Shown here piece by piece: positions 80-59,500 of a stretch of DNA of 64,000 nucleotides; position 1 is the stretch's first letter; each line of letters starts with the position of its first letter. The stretch is from Tridacna crocea. Its lineage: Eukaryota; Mollusca; Bivalvia; Cardiida; Cardiidae. The notes below the pieces were generated by a model, which saw only the letters and a list, made by a program, of their open reading frames with translations, was not told the origin of the DNA and did not search any database. The translations under genes were made by a program, and so were the position numbers. The DNA lies in assembly GCA_943736015.1 (NCBI GenBank), contig OX031070.1, positions 44,416,173-44,480,172 of the forward strand, given 5' to 3'.

Positions 80-309
80 TTAACCCTTTACCCTATAAAG
101 CATTTCTATGGTATCTCTAATTAACCCTAAATAACAGCAAGGATGAAGACGTTTCTTACGTATAAATGACACCTCTTGATAGCATAGAAAATATTGTGAG
201 AAAAAGGTGAAATTGCTCGTCACGAGCAATTTCACCTTTTACCACAATGTTTTCCAAAGGCTCCTACAAGCAATGTGTAGAAATGAGTATCTTTGGAGTA
301 AAGGGTTAA
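80..309 (+). mobile_element. TTAA-MITE, subfamily B
   Basis: TTAA at both ends, CCCTTTACCC left end and GTAAAGGG right end. The central hairpin GAAATTGCTCG/CGAGCAATTTC is flanked by GGTG/CACC. Confidence 0.85.
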
Positions 310-501
310 AAGCATAGATACTTATTTACAGACAACAAAATAAAAAGTGACTCAAAATTTGAAATTTATTTTTGGAAGGGTAGAAAACTGTTGAAAAGGA
401 GAAAATGCTGATTACCAGCATTTTAATCTTTGTCCACAGTGTGTTCAAGACCCCTATTCAACGGTGTCACTGAATGTCAGGATTATTTGATAAAGGGTTG
501 A
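306..501 (+). mobile_element. TTAA-MITE A, decayed
   Basis: Abuts the preceding copy and shares its TTAA. The left end is eroded; GACAACAAAATAAAAAGTGACT and a decayed hairpin remain. The right flank is TTGA. Confidence 0.65.
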
Positions 502-549
502 ATTCTGTTAAAAGTAGGGTTGAAAACCACTCAAGTAAATATATAGAGG

Positions 550-709
550 ATATTTGTTTTTTTCGGTGAAAGATCGAAATTTATTTCATCGAGTGGACAC
601 CATCGGTAATATTTTCAGGAGTGGCACAGCCACAAGTGAAAATATTACAGATGGTGTTCACGAGATGAAATAAATTTCGATCTTCCACCGAAAAAACTAC
701 AACAAATAT
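550..709. repeat. Long inverted repeat (hairpin element)
   Basis: Arms of roughly 55-60 bp with few mismatches around a centre near 628; they pair TTTCGGTG-AAGATCGAAATTTATTTCATC with its complement near 665-695. It ends in ATATTTGTT/AACAAATAT. Lies left of AKAP10 exon 1017-1101. Confidence 0.75.
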
Positions 710-1016
710 TCTTTTTATTTCATGCTTTTAACCCTTTCTGGTAGGAGCTTTATCAAAATCCAGTACAGTTCATTCCCCGTGGCGAACCCCTCCCGCATAG
801 CAACGCATTACAATATTACGTCAAGCGCAAGAAATATAAGGTATATGATGTCATATTTCCCATATGGTTGTCAGGCACGCGCAATTTACCTAGGCAACGA
901 GAATGTGAAAATCGGTATTTTCACTTGTGGTACCTGTGTAAGATCAAAAAATATTTTCACTGCTATTTCTCCATATCCTACCGGAAAGCATGAAATGATA
1001 TTGTGTATATTTTCAG

Positions 1017-7000: not shown

Positions 7001-10000
7001 TGTACATTTCCAAAATTTAAGTTTCAAGTTTTCAGTTGGGGTTGTCAAAATTCAGAACTGTGTTGTAAAGGGTTATTGTGATATAGTGTTCTTCATTCTG
7101 TCTGAGGTTTGACTTGCTTTTGGTTTTTTTGATTTCACTGTTACAGATTTACATTTGTACTCCAAAGACTGTGGGTGAGATCTACAGTGGTTATTGTGTG
7201 TCCCTAGGCTCTGGAGAGGTTGGCTTTGGAATATCCTACACACATCAATTAACCCTTTACCCCATAAGGCATTTCTATAGTACTCTAATTGACACTAAGT
7301 AACAGCACGAGCAATTTCACCTTTTGCCACAATGCTTTCCAAAGGCTCCTACAAGCAATGCATAGAAATGAGTATCTGCGGAGTAAAGAGTTAACCCTTA
7401 ACCAAACCCACTTTTCATGACCCTGAGGGATTTGAAAATATTGTTGGAAAAGGAGAAAATGCTGTTAACCACCATTTTTGTCTTTTTTCCACAATGTTTT
7501 CTATCCTGTGAAAAAGGACAAAATGCTGGTTATTTGCATCTCATTCGCCCAGAATGTTTTCAGGAGGCTTGAAGCCTTCTCCTAAAGGGTTGTTAAAAGT
7601 GTGGACTATGTTATAGGTAGAGTTAAATACAGGAATGACAGTAATAGGTGAACTATTGCTATAACTTGACTTAAAAATTGTTGAAGAAAATGCTGAATAC
7701 AGACTGAAACAGGTTTAAAAGAATGCAAAATACATTTTACTCTCAAATAAACCTTATCTTGTATATATTTTTTTTCATACAGGTAGTGAAACATCATCAG
7801 AACACAGTGTTGGAAATCAAAGCATTGGCAGTGAAAGTATAAGCTCTAAGAACACCTTACTTGCGACTGGTTACACACGACCTGTACAACTCAATAAACT
7901 GGAAGAGAACATGAAAAATATGGCCCTGGATCCAATGGTTCTAAACCCAGATGCATTGTGGGAAAGACCATCTTCAGGGTATGTTTTCTAGTGCTTAACT
8001 CTTCACCACACGAGAAAATTTTAGACTGGTCCAAATTCCAAGCATTTGCAGACGACAAAATAAAAGTGACTGAAAATTTGAAATTTGTTTTGTGAAGGAT
8101 AGAAAACATTGTGGGAAAAGGAGAAAATGCTGGTTACCAAAAGCTTTCTTTCTCAGGGTTGTAAAAGAGTTAACCCTGAACTCTTTACCACACAGCAAAC
8201 TTTTAGACTTGTCCGAATTCAAAGCATTTGCAAATGAAAAATCGAGGGTTGCTCAAACGATGCAAAATGCCTTTAATTGAGTAAAAAACATTGTGGATGT
8301 AGGGAAAATTCTGGTTACAATGTTTTCAAAAGCTTTCTTACTCAAGGTCATCAAAACTGGGGATTGTGTTGTTACCAAGAGACAAAATCTTAGAATTGTC
8401 CAGATTCACTTAAATTGCTGACAACAATGTTAATGTGGCTGATACAAGGATTTTGTTTTTTATAGAGTAGAAATCAGCATTTTCTCAATCTCCCACATTG
8501 TTTTCGAAAGTTTTTTTCTATGGGTCATTAAAGATTGGCATTGTGAGGTAAAGGGTTAATTGAATTATCCCATGTTAACAACCTTTACTCTTTACCACAC
8601 AATCCCAGTTTTTAATGACCCTGAAAAGGAAAGCTTTTGAAAACATTGTGGTAAAAGTAGAAAATGCTGGTAACAAGCATTTTCTCCTTTTCTACCCTTC
8701 CAGACTAAAATTCAATTTTTGTTCACATTTATTTTGTTGTCTGCAAATACTAGTACTCTCAATTTGGACAAGGCTAAAATCTTTTTGTTTGGTAAAGGGT
8801 TAAGGTAAATAGTTTTCAAATAATTGTAGCTAAATAATTGTAGCTAACTTATTTTTTAACTTTTTATTCTATCCATCAAAAGATCAGTGTAGCATCTATA
8901 GTTTGTCAAGGATTTAAAATATTTGTCTGTCTCGCTATTACTTGATATGGAGGTATTTATACTCTCCCCCACCCCCCCCATTGTTAGTCGGTCTGTCAGT
9001 AGGACACAGTTTTGGGTCATTTAGTTTAGAGTGATGATTAAATAGTATATTTTTGTGTATAGCATATACATAATTAAACACAGGCTTTTACAGAGTATAT
9101 TTTTGTGTATAGTATATACATGATTAAACATAGGCTTTTACGGAGGACGTAGACCAAGAAAAGACCGCATATATCGTGCACTCTGATCCCGAATCTATAA
9201 CATTCGCTTCAACATACATATAAATGGGCTTTTGTAGAAGGCATAGTTCAAGATCAGACTGCACAGAATGTACACAAGTAAATGTAGATTTTTGCGGAAG
9301 ACATAGACCAAGGAAAGACCGCATATATTGTGCACTCTGATCTTGAATCAATAATGTACACTTGAACATACACATAAATGGGCTTTTGTTACATATAAAT
9401 GGGCTTTTGCTTTTTAAATGAGCTTTTACTTTTTAAATGGGCTTTTGCTTTTTAAATGGGCTTTTGTTACATATAAATGGGCTTTTGCTTTTTAAACGGG
9501 CTTTTGCTTTTTAAATGGGCTTTTGTTACATGTAAATGGGCTTTTGCTTTATAAATGGGCTTTTGCTTTATAGATGGGCTTTTGTTCTCAACTAATATGG
9601 CAGAAACTTTAATAGAAGCTTTCCTACCACAGAAGCCTGTGCATCAGCAGTTTTCATTACAAGTAGAAAAATATTGCAGGGGTTGTAGGTTTTTTTTTTT
9701 TTGTCTTTTTTATTTAAGCCTTTACTCCATAGATACTCATTTCTATGTATAGCTTGTAGGGGCCTTTGGAAAACATTGTGGCAAAAGGTGAAATTGCTCA
9801 CAACGAGCAATTTCACCTTTTGTCACAATGTTTTCTACGCTATGGAAAGGTTTCATATACATATAAGAAATGGCTTGCTGTTATTTAGGGTCAATTAGAG
9901 ATACCTTAGAAATGCCTTATGGGGTAAAGGGTTAAACTGGCACTTATCTAGGGACTTATCCATTAGGTGTTGTTAATAGGCAAGCTATGGCACTACGTTG

Positions 10001-12580: not shown

Positions 12581-14222
12581 TTAACTCTTTACCAAATGAC
12601 AGAACTTTGGACTGGTCCAAATTGAAAGCACTTGCAGATGACAAAATAAACGAAATTGAAATTTGTTTCCAGCTGGGTAGAAAACATTGTGGGAAAAGGA
12701 GAAAATGCTGACCTCTGCGACAGATCTTTCACTTATAAAATTAATGCAGCCCAATTATCATAATTTAACAAGAGTGGCAAATTGTCGCAAGATACGCCCG
12801 TCTTACTCCAAGTTGTAAAGCTGGGGCATGCACCGGACAAAATTCAAGCATGAAAAACAACAAAGGGCAATAACTCAAAAATTAAGCGAGCAAGAGTTAT
12901 GGTTCCTGTGCACTGCACTCCCCCTTGATGAGATCTATCCACCCATGAAATTTCATAACCCTAGGTAGTATAGTTTTGGAGATATTCACTGGACAAAATT
13001 CAACTATAAAAAACGGCAAAGGGCAATAACTCAAAAATTAAGCGAGCAAGAGTTATCATTCCTGTGCACTGCACTCCCCCTTGATGAGATCTATCCACCC
13101 ATGAAATTTCATAACCCTAGCTAGTATAGTTTTGGAGATATGCTCCGGACAAAATTCAGGTATGAAAAAAGACAAAGGGCAATAACTCAAAAATTAAGCA
13201 AGCAAGAGTTATGATTCCTGAGCACTGCACTCCCCCTTGATGAGATCTATCCAGCCATGAAATTCCATAACCCTAGCTAGTATAGTTGTGGAGATATTCA
13301 CCGGACAAAATTGAAGTATGAAAAACGGCAAAGGGCAATAACTCAAAAATAAAGCGAGCAAGAGTTATGGTTCCTGTGCACTGCACTCCCCCTAGATGAG
13401 ATCTATCCACCCATGAAATTTTGCAACCCTAGCTAGTATAGTTTTGGAGATATGCTCCGGACAAAATTCAAGTATGAAAAACGACAAAGGGCAATAACTC
13501 AAAAATTAAGCGAGCAAGAGTTATGGTCTGTGCACTGCACTCCCCCTTGATGAGATCTATCCACCCATGAAATTTCGTAACCCTAGCTAGTATAGTTTTG
13601 GAGATATGCTCCGGACAAAATTCAAGTATGAAAAACGACAAAGGGCAATAACTCAAAAATTAAGCGAGCAAGAGTTATGGTTCCTGTGCACTGCACTCCC
13701 CCTCGATGAGATCTATCCACCCATGAAATTTTGTAACCCTAGCTAGTATAGTTTTGGAGATATGCTCCGGACAAAATTCAAGTATGAAAAACGACAAAGG
13801 GCAATAACTCAAAAATTAAGCGAGCAAGAGTTATGGTTCCTGTGCACTGCACTCCCCCTCGATGAGATCTATCCACCCATGAAATTTCGTAACCCTAGCT
13901 AGAATAGTTTTGGAGATATGCTCCGGACAAAGAACTGGACGCCGCCTGCCCGCCCGGACGCCCGCCCGCCTCGGGTGATCCCATAATACGTCCCGTCTAC
14001 GACGGGCGTATAAAAATTGGTGAGCAATTAAGGGCCATTGTGGCACTCTACTGTATCTTTTGTTGTTTTCCAAGCAATTTTCAACCTTCAACAGGTTTCA
14101 AAGCCATTTTTATATTTATTTATCGATGGAATATACCAGCATTTTCTCGCTTTCCCTCAGTGTTTTCTAAAGGCTTCTTTTTCAGGGTCGTCAGAAGTAG
14201 GGATTGTGTGGTAATGGGTTAA
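12581..14222 (+). mobile_element. TTAA-MITE A interrupted at its dyad centre
   Basis: The left half (TTAACTCTTTACC to GAAAATGCT) ends at about 12710. The right half resumes at about 14134 with ACCAGCATTTTCTCGC and ends GGTAATGGGTTAA. The insert is the tandem-repeat element 12711-14130. Confidence 0.85.
12711..14133 (+). mobile_element. Tandem-repeat-bearing element, 156-bp unit, seven full copies
   Basis: CCGGACAAAATTCA (or one variant) recurs at 12833, 12989, 13145, 13301, 13457, 13611, 13767 and 13923. Units contain AAAGGGCAATAACTCAAAAA and GATGAGATCTATCCACCCATG. The non-repeated tail carries GC-rich sequence with the short inverted repeat CGTCCCGT...ACGGGCG. No ORF. Confidence 0.9.
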
Positions 14223-16354: not shown

Positions 16355-16586
16355 TTAACCCTTTCCCAAACGACAAAGTTTGGACTCTTCCAAACCGAAA
16401 GAGTTCGCAGACGACAATTTTACGGTAGATTGTGAGAAAATGGCAGAAAGTTCTCAAAAAGGATAGAAAACACTGTGGGAAAAGGAGAAATTGCTCGTTA
16501 TGAGCAATTTCTCCTTTTCCCACAGTGTTTTCAAAAGCCTTTTACTGCAGACAGGTAAAAACCAGGCTTGTTTGGGAAAGAATTAA
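16355..16586 (+). mobile_element. TTAA-MITE, subfamily C
   Basis: TTAACCCTTTCCCAAACGAC left end; hairpin GGAGAAATTGCTCGTTATGAGCAATTTCTCC-like; TTTGGGAAAGAATTAA right end. Confidence 0.88.
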
Positions 16587-16808
16587 ATCATTTACAAAAT
16601 AATAATGACTTATAACAGCCCTAAAAAAGAAGCTTTTGAAAACGTTGGAAAAAAGAGAAAATGCCCCCTAGAAAATGCTACCAAGGGGCATTTTCTCCTT
16701 TTGCCACACAGTTTTCTACCCTTTCAGAAACAAATTTGAATTTTTTCAGTCACATTTATTCTGTTATTTGTAAATGCTTTCAATTTGCACTAGTCTCAAA
16801 GAGTTTAA
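16583..16808 (-). mobile_element. TTAA-MITE A with altered hairpin
   Basis: Arms read GAGAAAATGCCCCCT and AGGGGCATTTTCTC, a matched change in both arms relative to family A, with a longer loop. Confidence 0.75.
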
Positions 16809-24662: not shown

Positions 24663-25856
24663 GAAATAGTAAGAAAAAATATTTCATTGCAAATGGCAAA
24701 CATGTATTCTATTGTTTTTTTCGTTTTTAGATATATTTAAGGACATCACATTATACTTAAGATTTTTCTAGAAGTAACTAACAAAAGTATTTGACCGTAT
24801 TCTAGTTTAAAGAAAAGATATTTGACTCTATACGTAATCTGAAAATACACTTCCTGGCTCTTCTCGTGACGTCAGCGAATGGCCTCCTCGATGAATAGAG
24901 ATTTTCAAAAAAATTGTAAAACATGAGGGATATCTCTGGTTAAAAGGTGTCTACATATCTACTGAGGAATCGCTGAATGTCACAGGTACATTTCTCTGTT
25001 GTCTATCGCTAGGCTAAAGTAAATTATGACCAATGTTGGTTTGGTTTCGTTAGTGATTTTGGGTGGGAAACGCTGTCTTGTACTCGCCCCAGCATTCGAG
25101 ACGTTGCATTCCTTGTGTTTATATTATATAGGGGAGATTTTTTCTTTCATATTTGATCATTTATTTTGGTTATAGAATGCCAAATTCCTGTGATCTTACA
25201 TGGGGGAATTTTTTTTTTTTTATATTTGATCATTTATTTTGGTTATAGAATGTTTAAGTCCTGTGATGAAATGTTTGTATTGTAAATACTTAACCGATAT
25301 ACAGGTAAAAGTTAACTTAATCATATTAGTAAATTAAGAACCTCAAAAACCGGCAGGTCCACGACACACTTTTGTACGAAAATTTAAGGTGCGAATCACG
25401 AAGATTAAATTCTTGTGTCAATAGGGCGATCGAGTGCACAGGAGAAGAAAATAATCAAGTCAAATAAAACATTTTTTCATAAGTTAGACGCAACAGACAC
25501 TAATTTGTCACCTAATTTCAGTAATATCTGGCAATATACAAATACTGTAATTCATACATTTCCGTTTTCGAATCTGGAGGGATGTTAGTCACGTGGGGTG
25601 TCACGTGCTGGTCCCACATGACATTGTGAAAATATAAAATTGCATTTGGCGTAGGTATGGAATAACACTTTCTGATTCATCATTTTTCCCATCTTAGATG
25701 TTTTCACTAAAGTTTCTCTGAGTTTCATTGAAAATGAATTGCTTTTGTAATGTGTGCAATGTAAGTAAATTCGAATCGTAGGTCACTGGGCCAAATCTTT
25801 AGGATTTGTGTGCAGTCTGCTTCAACTTCAAGTTCAACTAGACTAGAGACCACATT
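24663..25856. other. Intergenic, upstream of the PRR14-like gene
   Basis: AT-rich; no gene or intact repeat recognised. A short direct repeat (TTTTCTTTCATATTTGATCATTTATTTTGG-type) occurs at about 25141 and 25211. The promoter of the minus-strand gene presumably lies here, but I see no clear core element. Confidence 0.5.
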
Positions 25857-26084
25857 TTAACCCTTTCCCAAACGACAAATTTTGGACTCTTTCAAACTCA
25901 AAGAGTTTGCAGACAACAATTTTAAATTAGATGAAAATGGTAGAAAGTTCTCCTAAAGGGTAGAAAACACTGTGGGAAAAGGAGAAATTGCTCGTTACGA
26001 GCAATTTCTCCTTTTCCCACAGTGTTTTCAAAAGACTTGTACTGCAGACACGTAAAAACCAGGGCTTGTTTGGGAAAGGGTTAA
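25857..26084 (+). mobile_element. TTAA-MITE, subfamily C, full length
   Basis: TTAA flanks; near-perfect hairpin GAAATTGCTCG/CGAGCAATTTC inside GTGGGAAAAGGA arms. Confidence 0.92.
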
Positions 26085-27365
26085 AGTCTGGTGCTCATGA
26101 AACATTAGAATGTTTGTCTGGATAAAATCTATGAACAACTCAAGTAGGTTAAATTGGTAAAAAATTAGGCCATTTATTCACATGCATTTCATATGATCAA
26201 AATCAAGATCTTTTCAGCTTTATCAACTAATGATTTTACTGAGGTGAGCACTCTAAATAGATACAATGGCCTTTTCATTTTCATGTTTTCAAGAGTCTCT
26301 TCATCAATGCTGCTAACACTCAGGATTGTTTTGCAAAGAGTATAGCTTGTATAGCAGCAATACACGTCCAAAGTCAGTTAAGTCGCGCCATTTACACTGT
26401 AATTTCGGCCATAATATTTGGAACACAAAATTTAATTCAACCTCGTCTTTTGTATGCTTTCAACCTTTTGATATACAGATTCGATACTTAAAGTGTTTGC
26501 ATTGGATTTTTTAAGCACAAAAATCAGATCCTGTAGAAGTGGGTCAAAAACAGCCGTGAATTACGTTACAAAACCGCGACTTGATAAAATGAATATGTAC
26601 TATGAACATGATACGATATATTGCTTTCATTTGTAAATCTGAACACTGCATATGTGTCTTTGAAATGAACAAGCGTCAAATTTCGGTCATATATTGCATA
26701 ATGAGAAAGCAGTACTTCTTTGATTTGAACATGTGATGAAATTTTTGTTTGCAAATCTTAATTGCATCAAATTCTAAGAAATAAGGTAATTGTCGTGGAT
26801 CTGTGTGGAAGAAATTGACGATAATTTATAGCTTATTAGGAAGCTATGTTATCCTGCATTATATGAATGCTTACTTGGTATGGATGAAAGCAACTATTTT
26901 ACTGTGGTCGGCTTGTACTATGGAGTGGTAACTTGCAACGTAATTCACATATAGAAGAAAATTAAAATGAACTAATATTTAGGAAATGTTTCTCCTTTCA
27001 TTAAATTTAAAATCAAATCCTCTTAGAATATTGTAGCAAACTGAAAATAAATGGATCTTTGAAAATGTAAGAAATGAATAATAACACTTTTGAGATTCAA
27101 CAGCAGCAATTTGTGTAAGTTTTAGATACAACTTTACAAACACTACTAAATGTATTATATGCAGGGCATAAAAAGCGAATAAAATGCAAAAGTCTACTAT
27201 TTCCTAATAGGCTATAGAATGTTCCAGTCATAAATTATAACCAAACATGAGTACAGACTGTTCACTATATGATGAAAATGTTGTAATGTAATTCAAGTCA
27301 AAGCTGTAACGTAATTCACTTGTACTTCATTGACTTATTTATTTGGAAAATAAATCAAATTACTT

Positions 27366-29260: not shown

Positions 29261-32200
29261 ATGGTCCATGTAGTAGAGAATTTTTTCGGTGTCTATCTGC
29301 TATACAACTTGAACCCAAAATTCAAGGGCAGAACTTACATTGGTTACACTGTGGACCCAAACAGAAGAATTAAGCAACATAATCTTGGCAGACATGCTGG
29401 AGGAGCATTCAGAACAGATGGAAAAGGCCCTTGGTAATTATTAAAATCTTTTTAACTCTGTTACAACCAAAGTGCAAAATTTTAGACTGGTCCAAATTAA
29501 AAGGACCTGCAGAGGGCAAAGTAAGTGTGACTCTAAAATTGAAATTTGTTTCCAGCGGGATAGAAAACTTTGTTGGAAAAGGAGAAAATGCTGGATACCA
29601 GCATTTTCTCCTTTTCCCACAATGTTTTCAAAAGGCTTCTATCTCATAAAAAAACCAGGGATTGGTAAATGGTTAATACTATACCAAAGGACAAAATTTT
29701 AAACAGGTCCAAAGTGATTTTATCTGCAGATGTTGTGGAAATGGTGAGATATTGATTGGATATAAAACATTATAAAACATTGTGGAAGCAGGAGAAATTA
29801 CAGGTTACTAGCATTATTTTATGATACAATTATGTTACCAACCTTCCAGCTGAGAAAGCTTTTGAAAGCATTTTAGGAAAAAGAGAAAATCCTGGTAACC
29901 AGCATTTTTGTCCATTTCCCACAATGTTTTCCATTCTATGAAAGGCAATTTTTATGCCTGGAATCACATTTTTTATATTTGTCTGCAAATGCTTTCCATT
30001 TGGACAGGACCAAAATTTTGTGTTTTAGTAAACAGTTTAGCTTACTACCTCACCATTTATACAAAGAGAGATGCCTTCTCTAGATATAAATAAGAACATC
30101 TTTATACCCACTCTAATCAGATGTTTTTGGGGGTATACTGGAATCAGCCTGTCTGTCCATGTGTTGGTCTGTGTACATTATTAGTTGTACGGTCAGGTGG
30201 CAGGGGACTTGGAAACTTGTTCACGGCTGTGGTGAATCATGTCGCCACCTCGCCTTCGGCTCGGGGCGACATGATTCACCACAGCCGTGAACAAGTTTCC
30301 AAGTCCCCTGCCACCTGACCGTACAACGAATTTATTATACTGCAAAGTTTTACCCTTTCAAAGCGTGTTAAGCGAAATTTTCCTGTTTTATAATTTCACG
30401 AATCGAGTATGCTGACGAAATAGAAATTCCCTTCTGTGTGCCCCAATTCAATGAAAACTGACGTCACTGGAAACTGACGTCACTAAAACGTGCAGTTTGG
30501 TGAATAAATGTGCAGTCTGGTGATCGATCGGCGCCGCCATTTTGGATGATGTATTGTACGGGTAGTGATGTTTACGGGGCACTCAAAAGGGAAACTGGTT
30601 TTTGCCAGGGAACATGATATTATATTCCGGGCATGTTAACCAATCAGATCACCAGAAATTTCTTTGCAATATAATAAAATTGCCTGTTTCTGTCAAAGCG
30701 TAGACGGGGGTATTTAGTCACATTCAGTGACGGCTCTAATTTATTCTATAAAACAGGGAAATGGTGCTGATCATTCATGGTTTTCCAAATCAAATATCTG
30801 GATTAAGAGTAAGTCTTTCATTATACATGTTTTTCTCTTTTGAGATTGTGGCATGTTGTTTCTCTTTCGATCACTCAAATATTTGTTTTTATGGTCTTCA
30901 TTTTCTCTCTAGCAAAGCCTGTTTGTTTCTTCCACAAGTTTGTACATGACAGACAAAAATACATACATGTATTATACAGTTGTTCAAAAGGCACTTTTAT
31001 ATAACATTTCTTTTAACTCATTACCACACGACAAAATTTTAGACTGGTTCAAATTGGAAGCATTTGCAGACGACAAAATAATGGTGACTGAAAAATTGAA
31101 ATTTATTCTGGTAAGGGAAGAAAACACTGGGGGAAAAGGAGAAAATGCTGGTTACCAGCATTTTCTCCTTTTCCTACAGTGTTTTCAAAAGGCTTCTTTC
31201 TCAGGGGCGTCAAAAGTAGGGATTGTGTGGTAATGGGTTAAGTCTTAACGCTTTACCACACAATCCCGACTTTTAACACCTCAGTGACAGAAGCCCTTTG
31301 AAAACATTTTGGGAAAAGGAGAAAGTGCTGGTAACCAGCATTTTCACCTTTTCCCACAATGTTTTCTTTCTTTCGTAAAACAGATATTAATTCTTTAGTC
31401 ACATTTATTTCGTTTTCTCCAAATACTTTCAGTTTGGACTAGTCTAAAATTTTGTTGTTTGGTAAAGAGTTAAGATACTAAAATGTGCAGCTTTATCACA
31501 ATCATAAGCTTTAACCCTTTACTCCATAGATACTCATTTTGACGCACTGCTTGTAGGAGCCTTTGGAAAACATTGTGACAAAAGGTGAAATTGCTCGTTA
31601 CGAGCAATTTCACCTTTTGTCACAATGTTTTCTATGCTATCAAAAGGTGTCACATACACATAAAAAATGGCTTCATCCTTGCTGTTATTTAGGGTCAATT
31701 ACAGATACCGGTACTATAGGAATACCTTATGGGGTAAAGGGTTAACAGCTCATTTCACACATGAATCTTGGTCGCAATATTTGAAAATAAGGCATATAAT
31801 TACAGGACATTGATCAAATATGCCACTATTTCTTTATATCACACAAGTGTAAGACAAGAAAAGTTGTAATTACTACCCTACATAGAAAACAGAGAGAGTT
31901 ACATACTAAAAATTGTTAACCCATACCAGACAATCCCTGTTTTATATGACCCAGAGGAAGAAGCTTTGTGAAAACATTTTTGGAAAAGGAGAAAATGATG
32001 GCAACCAGTATTTTCTCCTTTTCCCTCAATGTTTCCTGTTCCTCTAAATTCCGTTGTCTGCGCATGTCATATTCTTCAAAGATTCGACTGTCTTATATGA
32101 CGCATCACTAGCCCCAAAAGCGCGCAGACTAATATTATGCTTTATAAAGTAGCAATGTAGAAAATAGCTTTTATCAATACATTTTAGGAGAAATTAGACC

Positions 32201-35200
32201 AGCTTTAGCTCCAGATTTCTCTAAACTGCTGATCATAGCTGAGTGAATTGCACGAGGTAGTGTTTTATTGAGTAAACATTTATTTTAGTTTGAAATTCAA
32301 AGTAACGGTTGTTGCGTCTAGGAAAGTGGTTTGGTTCTGTACCCAGGATGCCCAAATTAGATAGATGAGTATTTATAGAATGCCATCTAGAGGGAGATAA
32401 TGCTCTAAATTCAAGTTTCAGTTTTTGAGTCATTTTTATTTTTTCGTCTGCAAAAGCTTTCACTTTGGACAAGTCTAAAATTTTGACATTTGAATAAGGG
32501 TGAAGCATCAGTATGATTGTCACATTTAGGTAAAGGATTTCTAAGCCAACATGTAGCTCATTTGTTATGTTGTTGTTTTTTTTCTCCTAAGTTTGAATGG
32601 GCATGGCAGCATCCAGAGAAATCCCGCCGACTCAAACATTTACCCAAAAAAGGGAAAAAGGAATTACAGTTTGACTACAGATTTAGGTATGTAGGAAGGT
32701 TACATTTTAACACCTATGGTAAGTACCTCTCACAAATATAGTTTCCTTTTTTCACCAGTGTAGATCAAGATCAGGCTGCATAAAACATTGTAACGATGAT
32801 CAGTGGTGGGAGAGGAATGAATCCTGTCACAAAGACTATCATCAATCATTGGAAAGAAATTGCCTGAGCTCGAGATTCCAAACTGGAATCTCCTGTTTTC
32901 AAGTACTGTATGCCACTGACGGCTCTAGTGGGGAACTTCTAGTTGGGATGAGTCTAAAATTTTACCATCTAGTAAATAAGTGATTGCTAAGACAGAACTA
33001 ACTGTGCTATCAATGAAATGTGTGCATTGTATTAACTCTCTACCAAATGACAAAATTTTAGATTTGTTAAATTTAAAGCATTAATTTTGCAGACGAAAAA
33101 ATAAACTTGATTCAAAAAATGAAACTTGACTTTAGATGACTATAAAACATTGTGGGAGAAGGAGAAAATGCTGGACCAGTCTAAATTTTGTTTGTTTGGT
33201 AAAGAGTTAACTGACCATTTTACTAGAAGAGAGATTATGTTTTTTAGGATTGTGTCAGAGATGTTGAGAGTGGGGCCATGGAACAGACTAGCTCTCACAG
33301 TCAGGTGGTTAAAACAAGAATTTTGCAAAGATTTCGACCCTTCCAGGGTACCCCCTCTCCACATGGCAATTGCTTACGGACCTGTCAAAAGTTGCAAGGT
33401 TAAAAAAGGTAAAAATCTATCACTTTACATATAAACTGATGTCTAGGCTGTATGAAAATGGAGAGAGTTTCCATTGTGGCCGATTACTCTTTTTATTCTA
33501 ATGGGTTTTAGCTCAGCTGGTCCAAGACAGGTTACTTTATAACATGACTGTCTATTGTCAATGTAAGTTTGTTTTAGAAAAAAATACTGCCGCACCTGGC
33601 AATATAACATGAATAAACTCTTGAGTTAACCCATTACCAAACGACAATATTTTAGAGTGGTCCAAATTGAAAGCATTTGCAGACAACAAATGAAAGTGAC
33701 TGAAAATTTGAAATTTGTTTTGTGAAGGGTAGAAAACATTGTAGGAAAAGGAGAAATTTGTTTTGTGATGGGTAGAAAACATTGTGGGAAAAGGAGAAAA
33801 TGCTGGTTTCTAGCACTTTCTTCTTGCCCACAACACTTTCAACGTCTTCTTCCTAGAGGTTGTTAGAAACAGAGATTGTTTGGTAACAAGTGAAATCTTT
33901 TACTAAGGCATTCATATTTTGTTGTGCATTTATGACAGGTTTGCTGTTAAGAGGTATAACATTACATAACAGTGTATTACAGTTACACATGTATGCACAT
34001 ACATGTATGATAAATCTATGCAGCTGCATTTATGTTACAGTATATCAGAGCTCCAGATAAGAGGGAGTGATGGAATTCTAAATCCATTATTTCTCCTTGA
34101 AACCCTATGTTGTGGGTACTCATTAGAATCCTCTCTATGAGACGATTCTAATGAGTACCCACAACATAGGGTTTAGTGTAGAATTTTTAATATTTTCAGT
34201 TTTGAAATAAAAATCACTCCCTCTATCTAGAGCTCTGGTATATCAACATACTTGGCACTTTAGATCCAAGACCAGGCTGCGTGTGCCATACTGTCTGATA
34301 TTGATCTATAGTTGCTTTTAAAGCTAAGAAAGTTGCTTATAGCATCCTTAAGGTAAAGATCTGTAATTATGAATTATTTTGTCATGAATTTATGGTGCCA
34401 TTTGTAACTGATCAAACTTTCAAGGTGGAACGTTGGATATTTCAGCAACATCTATGTTTTTACCATTTTACTGTATCATTTCAAGTTTTAATAACCTTGA
34501 GGATAGAGGCCTCTGAAAACATTGTTGGAAAAGAAGAAAATGCTTGTAACCAGCAAGAAGAAAAGGCTGGTAACTAGCATTTTCTTTTCCTGCAGTGTTT
34601 TCAACCATCTTATACACAGAGTGAACTGTTGAACTACTCTTACTAATTTTCACTTTGATTCTGTAGATGTTTAATATTTCAGACACAAAAACAACTGCTG
34701 ATAACAGGGGAGAGAAGTCTGAGAGAGCTGATGAACGTGATGACGACATCTGTGTTCCAACACGCAAGTTTACAAGATGTGCTGTTTGTTTCAAAATCAT
34801 ACAGGTATATTAACCCATTGCCACACAATCCCTACTTTTGACGACCCTGAGAAAGAAGCCTTTAGAAAACTTTGCGGAAAAAGGAGAAAATGCTGGTAAC
34901 CAGCATTTTCTCCTTTTCCCGCAATGTTTTCTACCCATCACAAAACAAATTTCAAATTTTCTGTCACTTTTATTTTGTCGTCTGCAACTTCTTTGGGTGT
35001 GGACAAACCTAAAATATTGTTGTTTGGTATAGAGTTAACTTTTGCAGACAACACAGAAAATGAGGCTGAAATGGTGAAATTTGTCTCAGAGAAGATAGAA
35101 AACATTGTGGGTAAAGCAGTAAAGAAGAAAATACTGGTTATCAGCATATTCTCCTTATCAGTGTTTTGACAGACATATGAAGGCAAAAGTTAAACCTGAT

Positions 35201-40039: not shown

Positions 40040-40322
40040 ATATAAACTTTCCCGCTCTTAGTACTTCAGTGGTATCATACGGCAGCCCCCGTTTGCATCA
40101 GCAATGATGCTTTTCATCCTCGTGACCAAGGACACTCACGTGATCACGTGATCTTTTTATTTTTAGCTCGGCTGTTTTCGGAGATAACGACGAGTTACTG
40201 TCGTAGCCCTGGCGTCGTCGTATGCGTTGTTGTCGTGAGGCAAAATCTGTGACATTTTTGTAATATCTGTGTTACTACTCAAGATATTTACTTCATGAAC
40301 AGTTGGACATTTGGACAATCTG

Positions 40323-40553
40323 TTAACTTTTCGCCAGATGAGGTAATTTTGGTCTGCTGAAATTGAAAGAACTTGCAGACGACAAATTAAAAGTGGCCAA
40401 AAAAAGGTGGTATTTTCATCGATTAGAGAAGAAAAACACTGTGGAAAATGGAGAAAATGCTCATAATGAGCATTTTCTCCTTTTACCACAGTGTTTTCAA
40501 ACGCCTTCAAAGTTAAAGCCGAAAAAAAACAGGGCTTATCTGGGAAGGATTAA
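40323..40553 (+). mobile_element. TTAA-MITE, C-related, distinct hairpin
   Basis: TTAA flanks. The hairpin reads AAAATGCTCATAATGAGCATTTT, a fourth arm sequence with both arms matched. Confidence 0.85.
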
Positions 40554-41467: not shown

Positions 41468-41530
41468 GTAGAGTCAAGATCAGACTGCACGTTCTGTGCA
41501 GTCTGATCTTGATCTACACTGTCCGCAAAA
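41468..41530. repeat. Palindrome, GATCAGACTGCACG arms
   Basis: GTCAAGATCAGACTGCACG/ CGTGCAGTCTGATCTTGATC-type near-perfect inverted repeat followed by ACACTGTCCGCAAAAG, as at 47237. Confidence 0.8.
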
Positions 41531-46894: not shown

Positions 46895-47955
46895 TATTGT
46901 TACCCTGACCTCTGTATTGGAAATAAGATCGAATTACGCGGACAAAACTATCCTAAAAATCCTGATCGACGGTTCAGCCCGTAAGTAGGCCTATCTGTGC
47001 AAATATATCCTTCGCACTTACAGTGATTTCCTTCTTACATAAAGTAATATCCCTCGTAGATGAAGTGATATCCTTCACACATGCAGTGATATCTTTTCTC
47101 GGGCGGATTGCCCCTCGACATGCCTTAATATTTACAGTCGTTAGTAAATGAAATGGACTTTCTCATTCAATACTACAGTATGAAGGTATTACAGTTTCAA
47201 GGCTCTGTTTGTCAGAATATCTGGTAAAAGAGCGGACAGTGTAGATCCAAGATCAGACTGCACGTTCTGTGCAGTCTGATCTTGATCTACATTGTCCGCA
47301 AAAGTAATTAGAATCATGGGGAACGCTACAAGGGTTTTATCTCAGACTATGGGCCGAACTTTGGCAGTGGAACAACGAGGCTTTAATAAAATAGTAACAA
47401 GTTTTCTCTAGGCTGATAATCTTCTATTCTGTTCTAGTTTGCTTAAACTCAAACGTACTCGGACAGAGCCACTTTAGGCAAAACTAACCCCGGAGCCTGC
47501 ACTCTAAGCGATTTGTTCAAAATACATAACTGAATGAATCAATACACAAACGATTGAGTAAATGTATGAATAGACAATTGAATAAATCAATGAATAAGTA
47601 GAACGCTTTTAAAAACCAGTTTTTTGAATAAAAATAATCAAAAATCGTTTTTCAAGAACTGGCAAAGGACCCGCTACGAGATGACGCTCTGGAAAAAAAT
47701 ATTTATGAAATATAATTATATCTTCAAAACAAGTTTGTACTTGTACAAAACAAGATCATTGCGTGTAGAAATCATACTATTGTAATAAAATATAATTTAA
47801 CACCACCATTGTTAAACACATGATATAAATACGAGTTTAATGGGGGCCAGTTTTAGTGCAGTCCTTCTTTACATGTATCTAGGCTTATTTTATTCTTAAC
47901 CTGCCAAATACATTAAAATGAAACTTTACAGCCAATAGTAGAATTTAAACATTGT
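46895..47955. other. Intergenic, small repeats only
   Basis: A SINE tail remnant (TGACCTCTGTATTGGAAATAAGATCGAATTA) lies at about 46908. GTGATAT-CCTTC-type units recur at 47025-47100. The palindrome at 47237-47302 has the same arms as 41468. No gene recognised. Confidence 0.5.
47237..47302. repeat. Palindrome, GATCAGACTGCACG arms
   Basis: CAGTGTAGATCCAAGATCAG...CTGATCTTGATCTACATTG, near-perfect; second good copy of the 41468 family. Confidence 0.85.
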
Positions 47956-49498: not shown

Positions 49499-49562
49499 AA
49501 ACTAATTCAGCAGACGGCAATGACAAAAAGAAAAAGGATTATTCATTTTATGTTTCGTTTCC

Positions 49563-49791
49563 TTACCCCTTTACCAAACGACAAAATTTTAGACTGGTCA
49601 AAATTGAAAGCACTTGCAGACGACAAAATAAAGGTAACTCAAAAATTCAATTTTGTTGTAAACCGGGTAGAAAACATTGTGGGAAAAGGAGAAAATGCTG
49701 GTTACCAGCATTTTCTCCTTTTCCCACAATGTTTTCAAAAGGCTTCTATCTCGGGGTGGTAAAAACCAGGGATTGTTTGATAAAGGATTAA
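49563..49791 (+). mobile_element. TTAA-MITE A, full length
   Basis: Left TTAC, right TTAA; perfect hairpin. Confidence 0.9.
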
Positions 49792-49978
49792 TGAAAAACC
49801 CTTCGTTGATAAGTTAAGTCCCAGACTTTTTTTTTCCCAGTAAGGTAGCTTGAATTATACATGAATCTCTTTGATACGGAATAATTACTTAGGTTTACGT
49901 TCGATCGTTTAGATATTGGTATTGAACTGTCAAACTGTTCAGATAGTAGTAAGTTTTGCAGTGATCTTATTTAACTCT

Positions 49979-51210: not shown

Positions 51211-51288
<78 letters not shown>

Positions 51289-51775: not shown

Positions 51776-51834
51776 GAAAAAGTACTGGTTACCAGCCGAT
51801 TTTCCGTGAAAATACTGGATCGTTCGGTCAAAGG

Positions 51835-52500: not shown

Positions 52501-52891
52501 GTTTTTTTTTTTCAATCTAGCTGTAAGGATTATCTTTGAAGCATTTACAGATGACTCAAGAAATGAGACCTAAAACAGAAATTCATCTTTGAATTTGTAA
52601 AAAAAAAGTCATTCTGGAAAAGGGAGAAAATGGTAGTAATGAGCCTAGATTTTAAGGTCGTTAAAACTAGGGAATGGTTACGATTCTATCTTGACTTTAA
52701 TCGATAAATGAAACAAACATTTTACAACTAGTAAAGTCTGAATATAGAGAAGCTCCCACTGTGATTTTGCAGGAAAAAAAAAAAGAAAAGATAAAAAATC
52801 TAGATCCTAAATGTACTGACAAACGTGAATGCTGATCTTGCTCAGGTTCATTTCAGGCAAAAGAAACTAATTTTTTTCCCCCATTAAAGGT

Positions 52892-53184
52892 GTTGTCTGC
52901 GCATGTCATATTCTTCGAAGATTCTTGTCTTATATGACGCATCACTAGCCCCAAAAGCGGACTGACTGTAACATTACGCTCTATAAAGTAGTAATGTAGA
53001 AAATAGCTTTTATCAATACGTTTGAGTGAATTGCACGAGGTAGCGTTTTATTGAGTAAACGTTTATTTCAGTTTGAAATTCAAAGTCGCAGTTGTCGCTT
53101 AGGAAAGTGGTTCGGTTCTGTACCCAGGATGCCCAAATTAGATAGATGAGTATTAATAGAATGCCATCTAGCGGGAGATAATGA
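52892..53184 (+). repeat. Second copy of the 32046-32402 element
   Basis: TTGTCTGCGCATGTCATATTCTTCG to ATGCCATCTAGCGGGAGATAATG; lacks ~60 bp found in the first copy (TTAGACCAGCTTTAGC region). Confidence 0.8.
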
Positions 53185-53214
53185 CATTAAAAGGGGTAAG
53201 ACTAAAACTCCTCT

Positions 53215-53400
53215 GCATCATCTGGTGCAAATCATCACATAATTATAGTTACAAACAATTTATTTTTTTTAACCAGCGACTTAATCTTGAGGTAGAATTA
53301 TCATAGGAGACACAGAAAATTTACAAGTACCGAAACTTTTCATTTTATGTGAGCCTGCGACAACAGTGCAGACGAACATGGTTGATCCTATTTGCAGATG
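53215..53400 (+). pseudogene. Diverged duplicate of the 50200-50400 leader segment
   Basis: Shares the order ATCATCACAT, TTGAGGTAGAAT, CAGAAAATTnAC, TTTATGTGAGCCTGCG, ACATG, TACTTTTTGCAG with 50200-50400, but the donor is GCAGATGCG instead of GCAGGTGAG. It lies 150 bp before the first certain NWD-like exon. Confidence 0.5.
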
Positions 53401-53552
53401 CGTGAAAACAACTTTTCACTTTTACATGCAGAAAATGGGGAAACAGCTAACAGTATCGATCCAGGCCAGCCTTTTTCATTAAACCTACTTTTAAAAGGCA
53501 TGTGTGATATGGAAGTCACACAGGTCATAGCTCATATTTTATTTCTTTTCAG

Positions 53553-56500
53553 ATTGTCCCATTCGAATACGTCATCTAGAAGATGTTCTCGAGAATGATA
53601 CGTCAGAATTCGACCGGAAACAGAAAGAGCGCCCTCTGAGATATGAGCATCTTGAAAAAGATCAACACCGGGTTGTGGACGAATTGCTTAGGGGCGGAGT
53701 CAATTTGGACAGTTTACCATGTCAGCAACCGAAAGTAGTCCGGCTTTTTGTGTGTTCTTCCGGACAAGGTACCAAACTTATTATATATCACTTCTATACA
53801 CTGAGTAAAATAGGAAACTTGTTTTCGTATTGTTTACTTTCTCTGTATTCTGTTAAATATGTGTTTTTCAATTTCATATTTTGTTAGACGATTTAATCGG
53901 ATTTTATAAAACTCTCGTGCACTGCCCTTTATTCTACCTCAAGTGAAATACGTGTATAATGGCCTCTTTTATACCAATTAGGCCAGGCTGCGCATGCAGT
54001 TGATTTAGCACTTTCTGTCACAACTTTAAGAGAATGGATGCCATTTAAAATAGCATTTCACGTTTATTTGCTGTTTACACATCATTAGCTTGCTGATCTG
54101 CAGTACTTAGTACAAGATATTCAGAGTATACTTAATCATGACTAACTAATGATATCTTACTGGGCAAAGCAGTGGCTGGTTACATCCAATCTCCCAAAAA
54201 CTGTTGCAATGATCTTCTCTGCTAAAACATTTCACATCCCAAATTTGATCTTTGATAATGTCCTAATAAATTTTTTAACACAATAAACACTTAGGTTTAA
54301 CCCTAATTTGTAAAAACCACATGCACATTTAGTTTTTTTGTTAAATCAATGTAGATTTCGAAGCCGAGAGGAACTATTTGGCTGAGAACATTTATCCACT
54401 GGTGCGACAATACTGTCGGGACAATCATGGCGTTGACTTTCAGGTAAATATCAATTAAACATCTCAGCATGTGCATCTGTAAAGATCGACATGGGTCAGT
54501 ATTTTTGGCTTTTGGTAAATTTTCTGCATGTCAAGGGGCCATTTTACCTCACGACTTAGTCGGCTGTTAGACAAGCTGGATTTTATGGGTCCATAATTAT
54601 GTGATGTCTTGCTTGAAATAATGCATCACTGACTTGCATTAACCTTGTCTACCAGAGCATGGCTCATATCGTCGTTTTACTTCAAAAACCTCGTAACTAC
54701 AGCTTGTTACAAGCTGTAGTTACGAAGTTTTTGAAGTAAACCGACAATATAAACCTATACTGACGGCGGCGAATACAATTCATATTCCATCAAGCTTCCG
54801 AAACCATAAATTTCTCTTTTCCAATAAAGTTACCACATAATTCAATCAAGGGATATTTCCCTTTCTACATATTTTTGTGTTTTTCTGTTGTATTATATAC
54901 CCAGCAGTGAAATCCTGGAATTCCCCAGTGTAATAAATTTTGATATCATCACTAGTGGCGTTATCAACTTTCACTTTCACTTCCTGCCGTAATTTTGGAA
55001 CTACTTTTTTTTCGACTACATTTTTTTTTTTGACTTTCAAACGCAAAATTACAAATAATGATGTTAATAAGGTATATAATAAATAGAATAATCAACTGGT
55101 TATTTTTGATATGAAAAATATCTCACTCGGACGCGTCGTAAGGCGTTAAAAAACTCGTGCTGCGCACTCGTTTTTTCAACGCCTAACAACGCATCCTCGT
55201 GAGATATTTTTTATATAAAAAATAACCAGTTGATTATCCTCTATATCTTTAACTCTAGATGGTTGATATGTATTGGGGAACTTCTGACATACCCTGTGAT
55301 GACCCGTACAAAATGGCCGCCGTACATGAAGAACTCCGATACTGCCAGAAAACATCAATGGGTCCAAACTACGTGGTAAGTTTTATGTTTTCTTTCTTGT
55401 AGAACCGGTATATCGAAAGTGGAGTTTACTTTTTAAAAATATATATTTTTTATTTAAAATCAGTTAAAACAAGAATAAAGTACACCTTAACTCATTACCA
55501 AACGACAATATTTTGGACTGGTCCAAATTGAAAGCAATTGCAGACGACAAAATAAAAGTGACTGAAAATTTGAAATTTGTTTTGTGAAGAGGAGAAAAAC
55601 ATTGTGGGAAAAGGAGAAAATGCTGGTTACCAGCATTTTCTCCTTTTCCCACAATGTTTTCAAAAGGCGTCTTCCTGAGGGGCGTCAAAAGTCGTCACTG
55701 TGTGGTAAAGGGTTAAGACAACAGTATTGGCTATCAATGACAGTACTAGAGAGCAAGATGAAAGGCGCGATGGTTGCCACAAATACAGGTTTTATGAGTC
55801 TGAATGAACATACCATACAACATCATGTAGATCCATGCACTCTATCTTCTTGTTACGAGCAGATTTAAGATTATTATTCTTTTCCTCACATTATTATTAT
55901 TAATACAAACTCTGTACACAAAAAGCAAGAGTCACTATATTTAGGAGTGACCAAGTTAAAAGAGAAAGGCAGACAATCAAACACGGCATCTAATAATGCG
56001 CACTGTTTAACTCATTACCAAACGACATTATTTTAGGGATGTCCAAATCGAAAGCATTTGCAGATGACAAAATAAAAGTGACTGAAAATTTGAAATTTGT
56101 TTTGTGAAGGGTAGAAAACATTGTGGTAAAAGGAGAAAATGCTGGTAACCAGCATTTTCTCCTTTTACCACAATGTTTTCTAAAGGCTTCTTTCTCAGGG
56201 GCGTCAAAAGTAGGGATTGTGTGGTAATGGGTTAATACCTAACTGGACTTTTTATGCTCTATTTTGGAAAGTTCAGTTTTGCACGAACTTGAAAGTAAAA
56301 AAAAGCTTTTTTTTCGGAAAGGGGTTATACAGTTAATAATTTTTTTTCAGCTTTTGATCGGTCAGAAGTACGGCAACATTCGACTTCCGGTGGAAATTGT
56401 CTGCGAGGAGATGGAAGCCATAATATCAGCATTGAGAGGCAATGGACATGACCCATCCCTGATAGAAAATTGGTATCAAAAAGATACAAATGTCAAACCA

Positions 56501-59500
56501 AACTTGTATCGTTTACGAAAAGATGGTAAGTAGCTAAATCTGTCTCAAAATCAAGAAGGTTTTAACACAAATTTAAGCACTAGATTCATTCCGGAGATAT
56601 GTAACACATGCACTTTGTTAATTTCTGATCCACATGTGGAGAAAAACATGCTCTTTGTTTATGTCTAAATCATCACATAGGCAAATAGGTTGTCTTTATT
56701 CACCTAATCAATGTAATTCCAGCGATAGGCCCAATTAAAAAGGTTTCAGAAATGACAATAGAATTTTCTATGTAAATAATGTCTAATTTAATATACTTAA
56801 GACAGTGTTCTTTTCATCAACATTTAATTGTTGAATTTATACGTCAACGGATTCTCAGCACGGTGGAAGTAAATCCAGTGAGTCAACTCTGATTCTTCTG
56901 TCTATTCGTAAATTTTACCCATTAGTTTGAAATCAAATCCAAGTCGATGAAAAGAAATAGTACCTAGGGAAAAATCCTATCACATTTGAAAGCAACAGTT
57001 GTAAGTTAGTGCTTGATAGTATCACCCTTGGTAACATTATTGGCTTCTACCTAGACATGCCATTGCTCCTCCAAGTGTTTCGGGATTCACGTGATACTAG
57101 CAGGAAGTAGCCAATGCTGTCAACCTGACATTCAGATGCAGTATATATCAATCGCCCATGCAAATTCATGACCATTGATGAAAGTTGAAAAAAAAAAATA
57201 TACAAAGGACGTTCAAACATATATAAGCGGATCAAAACTACGGTATTTTCTTCTATTCACAGGAGAAATTAGACGTGTTCATAAAGGCATTGTTGAGCTC
57301 CTGAAGATTGGTGCTGCTAACACACTGGGCGAAGCCGAAGCAAGAAAGTACGCTGTTTCAGGTACATATCACTATATGTTTATGTATGTTTCTACAAATA
57401 TCGGCGTTGTTCTGAGGCGATCTAAAACATTTTGTCTACTGTCTTCCCTTTTTATCAAATCGGGAAAAAAAAAAAAAACATCAAAAAGACTGTCTTAACA
57501 AGATGTTTTTATTGACCTGTAAACGACCATGCACAACTATTAACGATTTAGAATTGTGTTGATTTGATAAGAAACAAATGAAAAGTATGGGTATATTCTC
57601 TTTATATAAATCAATAGACACATGATAGTCAAATTGACTTATGGCATACATTTATTCCTTTTGGTACATAAAAGAGAAAGCTTGCCTTCAAATAACTGTA
57701 TATTCAAGAATGAACATTACATGCCTTTGCTCTTAATACTATTCTTATTAGCAGTCCGCTTTGATGTATAGCAGGTGGTAAATAGGTTTGCTTTTTTCCG
57801 AAAATAGCATCTCCTTTTCAAACCTTTTAACAAACAACCTGTAATTTTAGGAAAAACTGGACTAGTATTTTGAACATTGTTCGAAAAGTAAGATGTCAGA
57901 CTGATATTTTTTCGACAGTGTTTTCCATCTCTTCATAGAGAACGTTAAAAAGCACGATTTGGTCTTAATTTGCTGTCTGCAAGTGTTTTCAGTATGTAAT
58001 AGTCTTTAAAAAATTGGTCTGATAAAAACAGTAAATGAGATATTTAGTTTGTTTATACCAATGAAACCAAGCAATCACAACTTTTATACATTTGTGACCC
58101 ATCATGCAAGGACCATCAGGGAACTGCGAAAAGTGTCAACCCTTGTTAACTAGCCTGTGCGAATGGCACAGGCTGACCAGGATCGACATTTTTCGCTTTT
58201 ATGATTTTTTTTGTATGAAATAGAGGATAATCAACTGGTTATTTTTGATATGAAAAATATCTCACGAGTATGCGTTGTTAGGTGTTGAAAAAACAAGTGC
58301 GCAGCACGAGTTTTTTTTTTAACGCCTTACGACGCATCCGAGTGAGATATTTTTCATATCAAAAATAACCAGTTGATTATTCTATTTATTATATACCTTA
58401 TTAACATTATTATTTTCAATTTTTCGTTTGAAAGTCGAAATCAAAACTTTGGATAGAGAGGAGAAATCGGGGACATAGTGCGGTTGAATACATAATTTAA
58501 ACGAACAAAACAAGACTTAGAAAAGTAGTTGGATTGTCTGTTTGAAAATATAAAACTTACAATTAACACTATCTATAAGTACTTAATGAAAAAAGTAGTT
58601 CCAAAATTACGACAGGAAGTGAAAGTGCTTGTTACCAGCGTTTTCTATTTTCCCCACAATTTTTCAGAAGTCTTCTTCCTTGAAGTCTTTAGGGGTCAGG
58701 AATGTGTGGAAAAGAGTTCAATAACTCTTTATCTATAAACTACTCAATTTACAATAAAAGTTTGCCTGCCCAATTTATTTTCTAGATTTTGAAGAGCTGA
58801 TTCAGAGCGGTCTATTGAGGATAACGAAAGAAGCTGCCGAAACAAATTGCGCAGTGTTCATGCGGGACATCAAAAATATTGACGAACATCTTCACGCTAA
58901 AAATGCAGCATGTTTTGTTGACCTCATAAGTGACACGTGTGTTCTAGACGAGGAGAAAGGCGACAGGATTAAGTCACTGAAGCAAGAAATAGAGCAAACC
59001 ATTCCCGAATCAAACATTCTGAAATCAGTGATACAGTTAAACGGATGTACCCTGGACGAGAGTAAATCGAGTGACTATATTAATACTATTGGCCAACACC
59101 TTTACAAATTTGTAACAAACACCGTTGAACAGTTAACGCTAGAGGGTAGAACCAACTGTATTTGTGACGATGAGCTCTGTCATGAGGTGGCTTTACACTG
59201 GAAACGCGCTCGTGAAGCAAGTTCTCCTTTTTTTGGAAGGGATGACATTCTAAATGCAATAAAAGGATATATTCTGTCTGAAACAGATCATCCTTTAGTG
59301 ATCTATGGGAAAAGTGGATGTGGCAAAACTTCCCTTATTGCAAAGGCTGCTAATGATATTAACGAAGCAATATTAAACGGTCATCTTTCAATGCCAACTG
59401 CTCTGATAACCCGATTCATGTGCGAGACAGGAATTTCGCAAGATATTCAGCCATTTCTATTTAACATTTGTCATCAACTTGCATACGTCATGGGAAAATA

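What the first reader, a model, noticed from the sequence alone, without database searches (positions are those of the whole stretch)
80..58722. Arms of the MITE hairpin change together across subfamilies
Subfamily A has AAAATGCTGG/CCAGCATTTT, C has AAATTGCTCG/CGAGCAATTT inside GGA...TCC, B has the same inside GGTG/CACC. Single copies have further matched changes: AAAATGCTCAT/ATGAGCATTTT (40441), ATGCCCCCT/AGGGGCAT (16660), TGTGGTAAAAGG/CCTTTTACCACA (56120), GCGGAAAAAGG/CCTTTTCCCGC (34873). Sequence outside the hairpin drifts freely. This could mean selection for the structure (RNA or single-strand intermediate) or arm-to-arm correction during replication. The second could act on any palindrome and needs no function.
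Basis: partly seen in the sequence, partly recalled or inferred. Interest (0 to 1): 0.7.

Follow-up and report, generated by a model that had tools for sequence, protein, structure and literature searches.

The report
MITE palindrome kept paired in sources
A very abundant small transposon carries a 67-base mirror-image core whose two halves change together mainly in the lineages that spread, and decay independently once a copy has landed, which points to a requirement for spreading rather than to automatic repair of one half from the other.

Summary
The matched arm variants of subfamilies A, B and C are real. The element is a ~230-bp piggyBac-type (TTAA) MITE filling 19.6% of 200 kb sampled elsewhere in this genome. 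In 362 of 488 aligned copies, one-sided arm changes far outnumber matched ones (1,538 v 179). Five subfamily variants make up 98 of the 179; with these masked, 80 remain against 57-70 expected. Inserted copies show no general correction: private mutation is equal in hairpin and flanks (0.0079 each), and at one control pair 344 copies are changed in one arm while 9 are matched.

The coupling sits in source lineages. Of 12 hairpin alleles that follow the flank phylogeny, 10 form five exact matched pairs, one is the centre base and one is one-sided; flanks turned over at 89 of 151 columns. Selection on spreading copies for an intact palindrome fits best; template switching at subfamily founding is the main rival. 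The palindrome also inverts: the centre base is flipped in 7.5% of exact 59-mers, 8.4 times the same change one base away.

The parts
49562..49792 (+). End-to-end MITE copy of the main subfamily (A); right end TTAA, left end mutated to TTAC
   Evidence: nhmmer hit over model positions 3-233 and the printed sequence
49670..49736 (+). Its central palindrome, 33-nt arms, 1-nt centre (T)
   Evidence: perfect inverted repeat
25856..26085 (+). Subfamily C copy (AAATTGCTCG/CGAGCAATTT; pair 26 C-G)
25963..26029 (+). Subfamily C palindrome, 33-nt arms
31510..31639 (-). Aligned part of a subfamily B copy; its palindrome is 31566-31632
202..240 (+). Subfamily B palindrome (GGTG/CACC)
9782..9822 (-). Subfamily B palindrome
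56006..56235 (+). A copy with pair-20 G-C to T-A and inverted centre (A); palindrome 56112-56182; its 49-mer core has 80 exact genomic sites
40322..40552 (+). Copy with GCTCAT/ATGAGC core (palindrome 40450-40480); core has 76 exact genomic sites
34809..35038 (-). Copy with matched pair 23 (T-A to C-G) and mismatches at pairs 20 and 27
16586..16804 (-). Rearranged copy: 14-nt insertion giving a new CCCC/GGGG pairing
31012..31474 (.). Two MITE copies in opposite orientation (+ 31012-31242, - 31244-31474), the longest inverted repeat listed with arms up to 200 nt apart
34091..34183 (.).
41474..41512 (.). Control palindrome family P2 (second copy 47248-47284)
558..696 (.). Control palindrome family P5

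Best explanation
A non-autonomous piggyBac-type MITE (TTAA target, ~230 bp) carries a central palindrome of 33+1+33 nt. Shown: among lineages that amplified, the palindrome is conserved while flanks turn over, and its lasting changes come mostly as matched pairs. Shown: once inserted, copies mutate in the two arms nearly independently and at the flank rate. Inferred: copies whose palindrome is broken are poorly mobilised, so selection among source copies keeps the arms complementary. Most likely the intact palindrome is needed in cis during excision or synapsis, either as an extruded hairpin/cruciform that bends or shortens this very short element, or as a two-fold symmetric protein site; sequence alone does not decide between these. 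Matched changes are then subfamily markers, not repair events in each copy.
For: Age-matched scan of 173 hairpin alleles: 12 follow the flank phylogeny (0.9 expected false); 10 of these are the two sides of pairs 3, 8, 13, 20 and 26, one is the centre T>C, one is one-sided (-21 G>T). Ten random sites of 66 forming five partner pairs: 1.1e-6 (computed for the ten alleles, exchangeable positions assumed, not recomputed for the 11 arm alleles). Flanks: 89 of 151 columns carry such alleles. Five of 33 pairs changed against 50 of 92 inner flank columns, Fisher P 8e-5. Singleton changes in a 109-copy cluster: hairpin 56 of 7,127, flank 128 of 16,119, both 0.0079. Copy-level 80 matched v 1,517 one-sided after masking, against 5 v 3 at lineage level (P 2e-5). 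Genome counts: 34,027 exact T-A palindromes, 9,352 with C-G at pair 26, 1,615 with left-changed C.A, where random combination would give about 8,400 if the unmeasured right-changed class is equal. Subfamily B (10 copies) keeps the hairpin although 82 of 151 flank columns differ. Terminal repeats of amplified lineages tolerate mismatches.
Against: No experiment shows the palindrome affects mobility. Few founder events underlie the claim: five common pairs, two of them shared by B and C. One-sided lineage states exist: -21 G>T, -21 G>A in B and -27 A>T in a 4-copy cluster. One-sided C.A at pair 26 is about 3 times what mutation alone should give (my arithmetic, assuming 1-2% for the unmeasured G>A), so broken stems may spread to some degree. 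Four of the five paired changes are double transversions (G-C to C-G, A-T to T-A), which a one-step strand switch explains more easily than two point mutations. Terminal repeats also covary at positions 8, 11 and 14, so coupling is not unique to the hairpin. A small matched excess remains inside lineages: 25 matched v 5.4 expected in the 109-copy cluster, of which 18 are pair 26 and two the pair-20 T-A subfamily; 57 close copy pairs differ by 170 one-sided, 10 paired and 8 unpaired double changes.
Confidence: 0.6

Rival explanations
1. Template switching (strand switching at the palindrome during replication) makes both sides of a pair change in one event in rare source copies, and founders then amplify; no function of the palindrome is needed.
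For: Monttinen and Loytynoja 2022 (PMC8794818, passages read) describe matched stem changes and loop inversions from this process. Here the centre base is inverted in 886 of 11,861 exact 59-mers against 105 of 11,080 for the neighbouring T>A, and inverted copies are only weakly clustered by flank (P 0.065; P 0.27 with one neighbour). Four of five lineage pairs are double transversions. One copy (16660) has a new CCCC/GGGG block.
Against: If neutral, paired changes should arise about as often per pair as changes per flank column, but 5 of 33 pairs changed against 50 of 92 inner flank columns. A symmetric inversion moves a mismatch to the other arm and does not repair it (inference). Matched copies are few at the one pair counted: 9, against 3.5 expected.
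Confidence: 0.25
2. Arm-to-arm correction acts on every integrated palindrome and needs no function.
For: Small excess of matched changes after masking: 80 v 56.6 with flank-age strata (P 0.0025); 9 v 3.5 at pair 1 (Poisson P 0.0095). Unrelated palindromes show a similar small excess (P2 20 v 9.6, P1 6 v 2.6, P5 3 v 1.25). In the 109-copy cluster five matched doubles remain after pair 26 and the pair-20 T-A subfamily are set aside.
Against: With hairpin-age strata the excess is 80 v 69.7, P 0.095. Private rate equals flank rate. At pair 1, 344 copies are changed in the left arm alone against 9 matched, so correction reaches about 1% of changes there. Mirrored arm indels away from the centre are 4 pairs among 265 arm indels.
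Confidence: 0.05
3. The arms are binding sites of a two-fold symmetric protein (for example a transposase dimer) and co-vary because both must be recognised; no folding occurs. This is one form of the selection reading, so its odds overlap with the best explanation.
For: Terminal repeats at the two ends of the element also covary at positions 8, 11 and 14. Conservation of sequence, not only of pairing.
Against: A 67-nt uninterrupted dyad with a 1-nt centre is long for a protein site (general knowledge). Amplified lineages tolerate mismatched terminal repeats more than a mismatched palindrome. Centre inversions and deletions ending at the centre show that the DNA does behave as a palindrome.
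Confidence: 0.3
4. Selection for an RNA hairpin (a small-RNA precursor or transcript structure).
For: The transcript of the 56112-56182 copy would fold at -53.9 kcal/mol, z -15.7.
Against: No Rfam match in the window at gathering scores; transcription could not be tested here; four of five lineage pairs cannot pass through G-U; the DNA strand folds as well (-38 kcal/mol, z -16.6).
Confidence: 0.07

Closest known systems
CMITEs of Acropora corals (piggyBac-like MITEs; PMC2872659, abstract and passages read)
   Same: TTAA target; left ends beginning CCCTTTC in the families shown in the passages; an internal region more conserved between families than the ends, suspected by the authors of a role in transposition; piggyBac-like elements in the same genome
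   Different: CMITEs are ~100 bp; a word search of the main text finds no palindrome, hairpin or secondary structure; homology of the internal regions was not tested here
Template-switch model of hairpin creation and maintenance (PMC8794818, passages read)
   Same: Matched stem changes and loop inversion as products of one replication event
   Different: Here inversion is frequent but repair of mismatches in inserted copies is rare, and the coupling is mainly in amplifying lineages
Hairpin-associated minute inversions of plastid DNA (search listing only; the original description recalled, not read)
   Same: A short centre flips between inverted arms
   Different: Nuclear, dispersed, tens of thousands of identical palindromes (34,027 exact 57-mers)

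Membership tests
piggyBac-type MITE | TTAA target site, one TTAA in the empty site | tested here: met
   161 of 237 end-to-end copies have TTAA near both ends; L044:8934-9162 against L035 aligns over 144 nt at 93% with a single TTAA (the clearest of the eight queries printed, out of 543 candidate alignments, several of which are MITE against MITE)
piggyBac-type MITE | terminal CC[C/T]T next to TTAA | tested here: met
   Both ends CCCTTT in the consensus of subfamilies B, C and cluster 44; in the all-copy consensus the right end is CCCTTT but the left end CTCTTT
piggyBac-type MITE | short, no coding capacity, high copy number | tested here: met
   ~230 bp; 215 hits in 200 kb; the four open frames of 150 codons or more in the window lie within 19454-22516 or beyond 58758
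piggyBac-type MITE | ends shared with an autonomous piggyBac of the same genome | not testable with these tools
CMITE-like group | internal region more conserved than flanks and ends | tested here: met
   93% against 81% and 87%
CMITE-like group | sequence homology with coral CMITE internal region | not tested
   no CMITE sequence was compared
Template-switch product | matched multi-base change or loop inversion in one step | tested here: inconclusive
   centre inversion enriched 8.4-fold; one block change; no ancestral branch resolved for the five lineage pairs

The most novel reading that the evidence does not exclude
The MITE must fold its DNA (hairpin or cruciform) in order to move. Selection among source copies keeps the 33-bp stem perfect, and the recurrent flip of the centre base is a scar of that folding, so secondary structure is an inherited, selected part of transposition.
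Probability: 0.25. Interest if true: 0.75.

Novelty: new variant of a known kind. Interest (0 to 1): 0.5.

Why it matters
Compensatory change is usually read as proof of a functional fold, and template switching has been offered as a function-free alternative. A palindrome present in tens of thousands of exact copies lets the two be separated: changes after insertion measure mutation and correction, changes that amplified measure what spreading requires. Here the two differ sharply. It also makes the role of MITE internal sequence, raised for coral CMITEs, directly testable.

Tried and rejected
Rfam and tRNA searches of the window found nothing. Raw covariation counts were rejected as evidence because subfamily descent and copy age inflate them (unstratified expectation after masking 43.0). 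The allele scan first run with a concordance cut-off gave 10 alleles, all in five pairs; repeated with an age-matched test it added one one-sided allele and the centre, and cluster consensus adds two further one-sided states. Mirrored indels: 12 pairs, of which 8 touch the centre. Whether centre inversions accumulate with age could not be decided: the excess over other hairpin T sites ran 0.053, 0.126, 0.022, 0.125, 0.173 from young to old. No paper on arm covariation in MITEs was seen in the listings (open-access text only).

Rows used or dropped: of 488 copies, 362 passed the flank and hairpin filter, 292 that, 335 (same filter), 360, 319; search-target copies were also dropped (centre test; 306 left); L001 was dropped because it lies in the window.
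Full report
WHAT IT IS. The repeated hairpin is the centre of a ~230-bp element that begins and ends with TTAA plus C[C/T]CTTTACC-like ends. I collected 488 non-redundant copies from the window, 29 search loci and 20 stretches of 10 kb at fixed positions. It covers 39,147 of 200,000 bases of the fixed samples, with 1 to 27 hits in each of the 20. A clean paralogous empty site with one TTAA supports TTAA insertion, and the genome holds many intact piggyBac transposases (118 matches).

THE OBSERVATION. The arms are fully complementary in the consensus over 33 positions around a single centre base, and the A, B and C variants are as described. In 362 of 488 copies with enough flank and hairpin, the 33 pairs give 9,571 unchanged cells, 721 left-only, 817 right-only, 179 matched double and 92 unmatched double changes; column independence predicts 55.7 matched. 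Mismatched pairs rise from 0.048 to 0.233 per pair with flank divergence.

WHERE THE MATCHED CHANGES SIT. Five variants (pairs 3, 8, 13, 20 and 26 from the centre) make up 98 of the 179 and are shared by copies with similar flanks: 64-84% of nearest neighbours share them against 3-9% expected; of nine other double changes tested, one (pair 14 A-T) is weakly clustered (P 0.044) and eight are not. Masking the five leaves 80 matched and 89 unmatched doubles against 1,517 one-sided in 360 copies; expectation is 56.6 within flank-age strata (P 0.0025) and 69.7 within hairpin-age strata (P 0.095).

INSERTED COPIES DO NOT GENERALLY CORRECT THEIR ARMS. In a tight cluster of 109 copies, substitutions seen once occur at 0.0079 per site in both hairpin (56 of 7,127) and flank (128 of 16,119). 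The same cluster has 175 one-sided, 25 matched (5.4 expected) and 3 unmatched doubles; 18 of the 25 are pair 26 and two the pair-20 T-A subfamily. Genome-wide, 34,027 sites match the exact 57-mer palindrome; 344 differ only by T>C at the left of pair 1 and 9 have the matched C-G. If the right side mutates equally, which was not measured, independence predicts 3.5. So a small excess remains, about 1% of one-sided changes. Unrelated palindromes of the window behave alike: P2 199 one-sided to 20 matched, P1 45 to 6, P5 40 to 3.

SOURCE LINEAGES CHANGE MOSTLY IN PAIRS. I tested every hairpin allele seen in three or more copies for sharing between flank neighbours, permuting within age strata. Of 173 alleles, 12 pass P 0.005 (0.9 expected false). 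Ten are the two sides of the same five pairs; the others are the centre T>C and a one-sided -21 G>T. Cluster consensus adds two one-sided states, -21 G>A in B and -27 A>T in a four-copy cluster. Flanks have such alleles at 89 of 151 columns. Inner flanks, scored by the first cut-off, have them at 50 of 92 columns against 5 of 33 pairs (P 8e-5). Terminal repeats covary at positions 8, 11 and 14, but amplified lineages also tolerate mismatches there: the commonest state is itself unpaired at positions 6, 15 and 18, and lineage alleles at 13 and 19 are mostly one-sided. For pair 26 the genome holds 34,027 T-A, 9,352 C-G and 1,615 C.A palindromes; random combination of arms would give about 8,400 of the last if the right-changed class, not counted, is equal. 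The 1,615 still exceed what mutation alone should give, so one-sided intermediates are not wholly barred.

THE PALINDROME IS PHYSICALLY ACTIVE. With orientation fixed by the right flank, 10,975 exact 59-mers have T at the centre and 886 have A, while the same change one base away occurs in 105. In 306 copies, A-centre copies are only weakly clustered by flank (0.16 v 0.10, P 0.065), unlike pair 26 (0.66 v 0.24, P 0.0003). Recurrent inversion of the palindrome is the natural reading. In 237 end-to-end copies, deletions of 8 nt or more are 1.76 per kb-copy in the hairpin and 0.52-1.07 in three flank regions; 16 of the 28 hairpin deletions end within 4 nt of the centre against 7.4 by random placement (P 0.0002).

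READING. Coupling that is strong in lineages that spread and nearly absent in copies after insertion is what selection at the mobilisation step would leave. The slow rate of paired change relative to the flanks argues that the sequence matters too, which strand switching alone does not explain. Strand switching or a like process does seem to happen here, since the centre flips, and it may supply the paired mutations in one step; four of the five common pairs are double transversions. Whether the requirement is a folded hairpin or a symmetric protein site is open.

COMPARISON. Coral CMITEs share the TTAA target, CCCTTT ends and a conserved internal region (PMC2872659; abstract and passages). 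The template-switch model (PMC8794818; passages) supplies a mutational route. I saw no report that separates source-lineage from copy-level arm changes in a MITE; that rests on the listings only.

Noticed in passing
window 12750-13983: Tandem array with a ~156-bp period (seven overlapping 300-nt matches)
   Followed up: no
window 41474-41512 and 47248-47284: Second dispersed palindrome family (P2), 64 copies in 358 kb, perfect arms of 16-17 nt with a 5-nt centre
   Followed up: partly
window 30180-30331: Inverted repeat with 67-nt arms 99% complementary; only 3 hits in 358 kb
   Followed up: no
window 55079-55246 and 58214-58393: Two related long imperfect palindromes (75- and 83-nt arms, 85% and 84%)
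   Followed up: no
window 19454-22516 (-): 1,020-codon open frame with a Tantalus-like domain (PF15386)
   Followed up: no
window 58758-62231 and 62790-63974 (+): NWD1-like NTPase with winged-helix and WD40 matches, and a second open frame with WD40-type matches
   Followed up: no
terminal repeats of the MITE, positions 8, 11 and 14: The two ends also carry matched lineage variants (position 8: 102 T-A, 68 A-T, 22 T.T, 7 A.A among 208 copies)
   Followed up: partly
subfamily B (window 31510-31639 and others): Differs from the consensus at 82 of 151 aligned flank columns but keeps the hairpin, as if hairpin and ends were a module joined to other flanks
   Followed up: partly
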